NCBI GenBank assembly: GCA_031264865.1
Contig: JAISDJ010000007.1
Location: 1 to 55,663, forward strand
From: Tannerellaceae bacterium
GTDB lineage: Bacteria; Bacteroidota; Bacteroidia; Bacteroidales; Tannerellaceae
Length of the DNA: 55,663 bases
Direction: 5' to 3'
Below are positions 27,745 through 40,542 of this stretch, one piece after another. Both the position numbers and the translations under genes were made by a program. The notes beneath the pieces are model-generated. The model saw only the letters and a program-made list of their open reading frames with translations. It made no database searches and was not told the origin of the DNA. The stretch's first letter is position 1, and each line of letters opens with the position of its first letter.

Positions 27745-28162
27745 TCACCGACGATAATTTCCTCCCGTCGGTTCGTAGAGTGGGAAGTTGCGATAGCCGG
27801 CGTCGCGGAGTTTGCCGTCGGCAACTAACCGGCGCAGGCGACGCCTGCCTGTCGACTCGGTAAAACCGCAAAGGGAACAGAACTCACGGCGGGTGATATG
27901 GGCATTGTCGAGGAAATGACGGATAACCTAATCCTTCCAAATGAATACGCCGGCCTAAAGCTAATTCGTTTGCCATTACTTCAACAAGAGAAATTAAAGA
28001 GGCTTTTACGTCGGCAGACGTAAGCGTACACATATCATGTATGTACTGAGCTAACTGGTCGGTATTCATCGTACCGGTTGTAACTACCCTTGCATGTAAC
28101 TTCGGACGTCCATCACTATCCTTTGAAACAGGATTTTCATAAAAGTCGTAATGTAAACTCAT
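27745..28162 (-). pseudogene. HU-related (HU-HIG-type) DNA-binding protein, internally deleted and frameshifted
   Basis: N-term MSLHYDFYENPVSKDSDGRPKLHARVVTTGTMNTDQLAQYIHDMCTLTSADVKASL...RIHLEGLGY aligns with the 39769-40380 protein. Its C-terminal module is readable in another frame as VIRHFLDNAHITRREFCSLCGFTESTGRRRLRRLVADGKLRDAGYRNFPLYEPTGGNYRR*, matching ITGIQFRQLCSFTHSTASRHLKRLVTEGKLQTIGHRRSPLYEPVEGHYHR. Confidence 0.8.
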
Positions 28163-28218
28163 CGTTTTAATGGTTTATTTATGATTATTATTGTTTGGTT
28201 TACCAAATCTTCAACCGA

Positions 28219-28296
28219 TCACCTCTGTGATCGGGATCCGTCACCCTTGTGAACGACTACGATCACACTTGTGATCGACTCCGTTCACGAGTGTGA
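28219..28296. repeat. Array A: four dyads TCAC-N4-GTGA at exact 22-bp period
   Basis: TCAC begins at 28219, 28241, 28263, 28285; GTGA begins at 28227, 28249, 28271, 28293. Unit 1 extends to CCGATCAC-CTCT-GTGATCGG. Confidence 0.95.
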
Positions 28297-28315
28297 CCGG
28301 TTAAAATTGATCCGG

Positions 28316-39768: not shown

Positions 39769-40380
39769 TTACCGGTGATAATGGCCTTCTACGGGTTCGT
39801 ATAAGGGGGAACGGCGGTGACCGATGGTTTGTAGTTTGCCTTCGGTAACAAGTCGTTTGAGATGGCGACTGGCGGTAGAATGGGTAAAACTGCAAAGCTG
39901 ACGGAATTGTATGCCGGTGATGTAAGGGTAGTTTGAGAAGTGCCTGGTGAGTAGTCCGTCTATTTCTGCTTCCGAGTGGCGGCTGGAGTGGCGCTTTTCC
40001 GGTGTCCGTGTCAGTGGAAAACGCTTTATTGTTTCCTTTAATTTCTTTTCGGGTCGGAAAACAATTGTCTTCGGATGAATGGACTCCGCTCGTATTTCTT
40101 TTGTCGAACAAACGGGAGGGCAGGATAAAGCAAGTTCGAAGTATCCCACACCTTTCCAGTGTACCCGGTGGCTGGACGATAAATGGGTTAAAAGTTGTTC
40201 TCCGAACATGCTCAGAGCCATCTGTACTTCTCCTGTTGTGAGTGTGGACATTTCGTGAATCTGTTTGGCAATTTCATCCGAATGGATGGTTCCCGATGTT
40301 ACAACCCGTGCATGTAATCTTGGCTTTTTGTCACTCCCTTTTTCGGGAGGATTCTGATAGAAGTCGTAAAATAATCCCAT
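39769..40380 (-). CDS. HU-related (HU-HIG-type) DNA-binding protein with C-terminal winged-helix-like module
   Basis: 203 aa; MGLFYDFYQNPPEKGSDKKPRLHARVVTSGTIHSDEIAKQIHEMSTLTTGEVQMALSMFGEQLLTHLSSSHRVHWKGVGYF is typical of Bacteroidetes HU-related proteins. Confidence 0.85.
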   Translation of the reverse strand: MGLFYDFYQNPPEKGSDKKPRLHARVVTSGTIHSDEIAKQIHEMSTLTTGEVQMALSMFGEQLLTHLSSSHRVHWKGVGYFELALSCPPVCSTKEIRAESIHPKTIVFRPEKKLKETIKRFPLTRTPEKRHSSRHSEAEIDGLLTRHFSNYPYITGIQFRQLCSFTHSTASRHLKRLVTEGKLQTIGHRRSPLYEPVEGHYHR

Positions 40381-40437
40381 AGTTTTATTGATTTATTGGT
40401 GAATAAGTAATTATTTAGTTATTTCTTTTTTATCGTT

Positions 40438-40515
40438 CCACCCAGGTGAGACAGTTATATCACCTAGGTAAGATAGATATACCACCTGGGTAGGATACTT
40501 GTTTCACCTGGGTGA
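40438..40515. repeat. Array B: four dyads YCAC-N4-GTRR at exact 22-bp period
   Basis: CCACCCAGGTGA, TCACCTAGGTAA, CCACCTGGGTAG, TCACCTGGGTGA starting at 40438, 40460, 40482, 40504. Confidence 0.95.
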
Positions 40516-40534
40516 GACGATAAAAAGTCGATTA

Positions 40535-40542
40535 CAAAAATA
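40535..40542 (-). promoter_or_regulatory. Predicted -7 box TATTTTTG for the HU-like gene
   Basis: Plus strand CAAAAATA, 20 bp beyond array B. Confidence 0.4.

What the first reader, a model, noticed from the sequence alone, without database searches (positions are those of the whole stretch)
40438..40542. Four-dyad, 22-bp-period array (array B) controlling an intact HU-related gene
Seen: four units CCACCCAGGTGA / TCACCTAGGTAA / CCACCTGGGTAG / TCACCTGGGTGA begin at 40438, 40460, 40482 and 40504, exactly 22 bp apart, so the dyads sit about two helical turns apart on one DNA face. The array is 58 bp upstream of the HU-like start codon (40380), and a TATTTTTG box sits 20 bp beyond its far end, which would place it in the transcribed leader. 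Inference: an autoregulatory operator or nucleation site for the HU-HIG/winged-helix protein, or a tandem-hairpin leader RNA. I do not know of a published description of this element.
Basis: partly seen in the sequence, partly recalled or inferred. Interest (0 to 1): 0.85.

Follow-up and report, generated by a model that had tools for sequence, protein, structure and literature searches.

The report
Dispersed 22-bp arrays paired with HU-HIG
The four evenly spaced DNA palindromes in front of this gene are one of more than twenty similar, unannotated arrays scattered over the genome, and in many gut Bacteroidales each such array family is paired with its own HU-like DNA-binding protein gene, which points to an undescribed class of specific chromosome-binding systems that can be tested in Parabacteroides distasonis.

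Summary
Four dyads (YCAC-N4-GTRR) sit exactly 22 bp apart at 40438-40515, 57 bp before the ATG of an intact HU-HIG/winged-helix gene. Its idea of a private operator is only part of the story. The genome holds about 22 such arrays, against 0-1 hits for a reversed-pattern control; most lie in intergenic DNA beside unrelated genes. Across Bacteroidales, 28 of 43 winged-helix HU-HIG genes have a significant 22-bp dyad array upstream, against 3 of 28 paralogues without the winged helix (p=6e-6). Dyad sequence differs between paralogues and follows the recognition helix. One genome has seven such genes with seven different arrays, at least five of which are also dispersed. In two P. distasonis strains, six of seven array loci examined are shared; their dyads are nearly frozen (2.6% change) while the N4 cores change at 33%, faster than flanks (15%). 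Best explanation: each HU-HIG protein cooperatively binds its own family of four-dyad arrays, one of them autoregulatory. The purpose of the dispersed sites (chromosome organisation or selfish repeat) is open. No description was found in the literature held.

The parts
40438..40449 (.). array B, dyad unit 1 (CCAC-CCAG-GTGA)
40460..40471 (.). array B, dyad unit 2 (TCAC-CTAG-GTAA)
40482..40493 (.). array B, dyad unit 3 (CCAC-CTGG-GTAG)
40504..40515 (.). array B, dyad unit 4 (TCAC-CTGG-GTGA)
40428..40437 (.). terminal inverted half-site, gene side (TTTTATCGTT)
   Evidence: conserved at 77-90% identity among family copies; seen in other type-1 copies
40516..40525 (.). terminal inverted half-site, promoter side (GACGATAAAA)
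   Evidence: conserved at 83-87% identity among family copies
40535..40542 (-). TATTTTTG, Bacteroidales -7-like promoter box; places the array in the presumed 5' leader
   Evidence: sequence; the same box lies just before the array at most of the HU-HIG genes inspected; no TSS data
39769..40380 (-). intact HU-HIG + winged-helix gene, 203 aa; the proposed cognate binder
   Evidence: Pfam HU-HIG 6e-31; AlphaFold pLDDT 88 with HU body and winged helix
28219..28296 (.). array A: four TCAC-N4-GTGA dyads at 22 bp, of a different half-site family (CCGATCAC)
28209..28218 (.). array A terminal half-site (CTTCAACCGA)
28297..28306 (.). array A terminal half-site (CCGGTTAAAA)
27748..28162 (-). HU-HIG/winged-helix gene broken by an internal deletion (N-terminal ~88 codons and last ~60 codons kept)

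Best explanation
The element is a compound binding site of four dyads plus two terminal half-sites. Inverted half-sites alternate about every 11 bp on one face of the helix. It is read by the winged helix of the HU-HIG protein encoded next to it; that protein's HU body would bend the DNA, so that several dimers assemble cooperatively. The copy in the gene's own leader would give autoregulation. The same protein also occupies a family of dispersed arrays with the same half-site elsewhere in the chromosome. Paralogous HU-HIG proteins with different recognition helices have their own orthogonal array families. Shown here: architecture, dispersal, association with winged-helix HU-HIG genes, match of dyad type to recognition-helix type, conservation of dyads. 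Inferred: binding, cooperativity, bending, autoregulation, function of the dispersed sites.
For: Upstream 22-bp dyad arrays at 28/43 winged-helix HU-HIG genes against 3/28 without the winged helix, p=6e-6; best period 22 in 26 of 27 scored. In the genus, YCAC arrays occur in 6/6 genomes with a homologue of at least 45% identity and 1/13 without, that one being 58% complete, p=2.6e-4. Parabacteroides sp. PH5-46 has seven winged-helix HU-HIG genes with seven different arrays; five of those types recur dispersed. Recognition helices of the TxxRRL kind go with YCAC dyads and KYLALKDL with CGAC dyads. In dispersed copies dyads keep 83-93% identity while flanks fall to 42-71% and most promoter boxes are lost. 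Between orthologous arrays of two P. distasonis strains dyads change at 2.6% against 15% in flanks, p=1e-7.
Against: No binding, footprint or expression data exist. About a third of the winged-helix genes have no significant array within 260 bp. Three HU-HIG genes without the winged helix also have 22-bp repeats, so the pitch may come from the HU body. Array families d and g of PH5-46 have no HU-HIG gene found next to them. The pairing of helix type and dyad was noticed after the fact and the all-against-all correlation is weak (rho about 0.2). Gene conversion could mimic part of the dyad conservation among paralogous copies.
Confidence: 0.7

Rival explanations
1. The arrays are MITE- or REPIN-like mobile or selfish repeats; HU-HIG is their partner or host gene, and dispersed copies are debris of HU-HIG genes that spread and were deleted.
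For: In G000 dispersed copies carry the HU-HIG leader plus about 10-16 decayed codons; C96, C10 and C108 also keep the 3' end. C69 and C108 look like one locus with full and internally deleted HU-HIG. In 20 other Parabacteroides genomes the secG-DUF4491 gap is 70-176 bp, against 292-293 bp with the array in P. distasonis, suggesting lineage-specific gain. Nearly all copies are intergenic.
Against: No target-site duplication or sharp ends seen. No transposase or other catalytic domain reported in HU-HIG. Arrays at shared P. distasonis loci are stable between strains. Mere debris would not keep dyads while flanks decay.
Confidence: 0.4
2. Regulon model: arrays are ordinary operators through which HU-HIG controls the neighbouring genes.
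For: Arrays at matching places in different species: between panC and a starch synthase-like gene in two species, and between TetR and clpC in two species.
Against: In the multi-species set convergent gaps, which hold no promoter for either neighbour, are 18/63 (29%) against 14% expected; only the panC locus was found shared between the fetched array loci of G000 and G005.
Confidence: 0.2
3. Transcribed leader RNA: the array acts as a tandem or long hairpin in the HU-HIG mRNA.
For: Array B folds as a 98-nt hairpin, z=-7.4; a promoter box lies just upstream of the array at the gene.
Against: Complementarity between the N4 cores of units 2 and 3, expected for a long hairpin, is not enriched (0.41 against 0.43 for units 1 and 2). 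Dispersed copies mostly lack promoter boxes, convergent gaps are not avoided, and the secG copy lies between terminator-like and promoter-like sequences.
Confidence: 0.07

Closest known systems
HU-HIG family (Pfam PF18291; HU domain fused to wHTH, Ig or Gly-rich motif)
   Same: The adjacent protein is a clear member with a predicted winged helix; nearest solved structure 4fmr from Bacteroides vulgatus.
   Different: No description of cognate DNA arrays was found in the library held; the family's original paper could not be read here.
BrickBuilt MITE of Porphyromonas gingivalis (PMC4596501)
   Same: Bacteroidales; intergenic; tandem units of about 22-23 bp; 19 copies; one copy lies before a PF00216 DNA-binding gene.
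   Different: Unit AGAYCATARTATCCTCTCRTRTG is not a dyad, copy number runs from 1 to 22.8, ends match IS5-family TIRs; ours is mostly 4 dyads.
REP/REPIN with RAYT transposase
   Same: Families of dispersed intergenic palindromic repeats, each with a cognate gene next to one copy.
   Different: The cognate protein is an HU-fold DNA binder with no Y1 transposase domain reported; copies are about 5-20 per family rather than hundreds.
Sequence-specific nucleoid proteins with dispersed sites, e.g. MatP/matS (from memory)
   Same: Few tens of dispersed specific sites for one architectural protein would work alike.
   Different: Four-dyad arrays, an HU-fold binder, several orthogonal paralogues per genome; chromosomal role untested.

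Membership tests
HU-HIG (PF18291) | HU-like domain above the Pfam cut-off | tested here: met
   107.5 bits against 26.2; HU/IHF chains hit by profile
HU-HIG (PF18291) | C-terminal winged helix (wHTH subtype) | tested here: met
   AlphaFold helices 137-179 and strands 183-196; Foldseek hits to MarR/HpaR-type proteins
BrickBuilt MITE | 23-nt unit AGAYCATARTATCCTCTCRTRTG, leader/tail with IS5-like TIRs | tested here: not met
   Our unit is a 12-bp dyad plus 10-bp spacer, 22 bp long; published unit read
REPIN-RAYT | associated Y1 (HUH) transposase gene | tested here: not met
   Adjacent gene carries HU-HIG and Bac_DNA_binding only
MITE | target-site duplications and defined ends | tested here: inconclusive
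   None visible and boundaries ragged; a shorter gap without the array exists at secG but intergenic DNA is too diverged to place ends
Autoregulatory operator | array bound by the product of the adjacent gene with effect on its expression | not testable with these tools
   Needs EMSA and reporter assays; only association shown
Sequence-specific nucleoid protein (MatP/matS-like) | protein bound at dispersed sites with effect on chromosome structure | not testable with these tools
   Dispersed sites shown; occupancy and chromosome contacts need ChIP-seq and Hi-C
Structured leader RNA known to Rfam | match to an Rfam family | tested here: not met
   Only a tRNA in the window reaches a gathering score

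The most novel reading that the evidence does not exclude
Bacteroidales carry several orthogonal, co-evolving chromosome-architecture systems per genome. Each consists of an HU-HIG/winged-helix protein and its own set of dispersed four-dyad, 22-bp-pitch arrays that it assembles on as an ordered nucleoprotein structure. The N4 cores at the dyad centres turn over unusually fast, partly by inversion.
Probability: 0.35. Interest if true: 0.92.

Novelty: new variant of a known kind. Interest (0 to 1): 0.8.

Why it matters
HU-family proteins are usually thought of as weakly specific DNA benders. Here a whole HU subfamily appears tied to precise multi-site arrays, with parallel protein/array pairs in one genome. 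If right, it assigns binding sites to a family for which no function was found in the literature held, explains unannotated repeats in gut Bacteroidales (including a P. distasonis genome that appears from its length to be the type strain), and offers orthogonal specific DNA-binding modules for study of nucleoid organisation and for genetic tools.

Tried and rejected
Array as a feature private to HU-HIG genes: rejected. Known Rfam RNA: none. Terminator: a hairpin flanked by TTTT before and AAAA after is the wrong polarity on either strand. Sharp MITE ends or TSDs: not found. Specific pairing of core 1 with 4 and 2 with 3, as a long hairpin needs: not supported. Phage or plasmid origin: one strict hit in viral contigs; the plasmid hits are unannotated or chromosome-like contigs deposited as plasmids. 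The search for related loci with the 203-aa protein found nothing in genome contigs and could not use the alignment in viral contigs; the genome search was used instead. The original HU-HIG paper is not in the library held.

Full report
What is in the window. Array B is exactly as described: four YCAC-N4-GTRR dyads at 40438, 40460, 40482 and 40504, 57 bases before the start codon of a 203-aa gene on the minus strand. It is bounded by 10-bp inverted ends (TTTTATCGTT and GACGATAAAA), so the whole element is 98 bp. A TATTTTTG box on the gene's strand lies 19 bases beyond it, which would put the array in the transcribed leader. The gene encodes an HU-HIG domain plus winged helix (model pLDDT 88; HU and MarR-type matches). 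A second array of the same design (28219-28296) lies before a HU-HIG gene broken by an internal deletion.

Genome-wide picture. The two-unit pattern finds 57 forward hits in the 4.7-Mb assembly, against 1 and 0 for its reversed control. They form about 22 arrays, most of four units, with ends of the form TTTTATCG..CGATAAAA, TTTTAACCGA..TCGGTTAAAA or TTTCCACCG..CGGTGGAAA. By half-site they fall into about four families (RTATCACC, CCGATCAC, CCGCTCAC, CCGTTCCAC). Only a few adjoin a HU-HIG gene.

Link to HU-HIG genes. I tested the 260 bp upstream of HU-HIG genes with a statistic that knows nothing of YCAC, only a 22-bp period and dyad symmetry. Among genes found by protein similarity, 28 of 43 with a winged helix score z of at least 4, against 3 of 28 without it, p=6e-6; 22 is the best of seven periods in 26 of the 27 winged-helix genes that reach this score. 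Dyads differ between genes: YCAC, CGAC, CGCC, TGTCA and others. TxxRRL-type recognition helices go with YCAC, and KYLALKDL types with CGAC; this pairing was seen after the fact. In Parabacteroides sp. PH5-46 all seven winged-helix HU-HIG genes have their own array type. Five of the types are also found dispersed elsewhere in that genome: four in the pattern listing and one (CAACAGTTGTTG type) between TetR and clpC. Within the genus, YCAC arrays occur in 6 of 6 genomes with a homologue of at least 45% identity and in 1 of 13 without, p=2.6e-4.

Origin and constraint of the dispersed copies. In this genome many dispersed copies resemble the HU-HIG leader on both sides and include the start codon and about 10-16 decayed codons; C96, C10 and C108 also keep the 3' end. 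C69 and C108 share a 1-kb flank at 84% identity, one with the HU-HIG gene and one with it internally deleted. So some dispersed arrays are remnants of HU-HIG genes. Within families, dyads keep 83-93% and terminal half-sites 77-90% identity while flanks keep 42-71%, and only 4 of 16 copies, two of them at HU-HIG genes, keep a TAnnTTTG box. Placement in the multi-species set is intergenic, with convergent gaps over-represented (18 of 63 against 14% expected).

P. distasonis. The HU-HIG gene WP_008779936.1 (mutL side upstream, rpsL downstream) has a four-unit array ending 57 bp before its start. Strain TSDC17.2-1.1 has unannotated related arrays at six other loci examined. Six of the seven array loci examined in TSDC17.2-1.1 are shared with strain NM39_I3 (secG, nucleotidyltransferase, udk/porin, HU-HIG, cusA, bioC-bioD). 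No counterpart of the seventh (L325, efflux/transglutaminase) turned up among the NM39_I3 loci fetched, and NM39_I3 has four further arrays without a counterpart among the TSDC loci fetched. Across the six shared pairs the dyads differ at 5/192 positions, spacers 13/180, terminal ends 11/120, flanks 237/1616 and N4 cores 32/96. Of the 14 changed cores, 3 are exact reverse complements (permutation mean 0.79, P=0.03). TSDC17.2-1.1 and the 4.81-Mb genome G171 (by its length, from memory, ATCC 8503) have near-identical arrays at the six loci compared. At secG-DUF4491 the gap is 292-293 bp with the array in P. distasonis; in the 20 other Parabacteroides genomes where it could be measured it is 70-176 bp. 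The P. distasonis array there sits between a terminator-like hairpin and a promoter-like box, which argues for a role at the DNA level.

Conserved places. Arrays lie between panC and a starch synthase-like gene in both G000 and G005, with different half-sites, and one lies beside the same synthase gene in RUG12482. Between TetR and clpC, G000 has a CCGATCAC-type array and PH5-46 a CAACAGTTGTTG-type array. These hint at preferred sites but are few.

Reading. Dyads conserved on both strands, with variable centres, 22-bp pitch and matching recognition helices, fit cooperative binding by the adjacent protein. What binding at dispersed sites achieves is not known from sequence. No published description was found in 8 searches of the open library; BrickBuilt of P. 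gingivalis is the nearest analogue and differs in unit and ends.

Noticed in passing
L330/L324, L332/L327, L333/L329, L338/L321, L347/L328, L348/L326 (P. distasonis NM39_I3 vs TSDC17.2-1.1): N4 cores of orthologous arrays change at 33%, faster than flanking DNA (15%), and 3 of 14 changes are exact inversions; cause unknown.
   Followed up: partly
L281, L058, L059: HU-HIG genes without the winged helix that still have upstream repeats of 22-bp pitch, with other sequences.
   Followed up: partly
L054:1501-2082 upstream: One winged-helix HU-HIG gene whose dyads appear spaced 23 bp rather than 22.
   Followed up: no
G002 arrays C4:208433, C6:224640, C6:205066 and similar: Two dispersed array families (TCACTCGAGTGATCTT and TCACCTAGGTGAGAATTTTTTC types) with no HU-HIG gene found beside them; perhaps orphaned families.
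   Followed up: partly
L003 (G000 C69) and L032 (G000 C108): Two versions of apparently one locus (84% identical flank) in the assembly, one with HU-HIG intact and one internally deleted; the assembly may mix two strains (contamination 6.86%).
   Followed up: partly
L032:6135-7298: VapE-like protein beside an array; homologues lie beside arrays in L098, L121 and L139.
   Followed up: no
NZ_OY725757.1 and related NZ_OY7257xx/8xx records: P. distasonis TSDC17.2-1.1 contigs deposited as plasmids carry chromosomal genes such as rpsL and secG.
   Followed up: no
L355 (G191), just after secG: A tyrosine-recombinase-like gene follows secG where P. distasonis has its array.
   Followed up: no
L100:3608-3751: A seven-unit TCAC-N4-GTGA array at 22 bp in a Treponema MAG, outside Bacteroidales (possible misbinning).
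   Followed up: no
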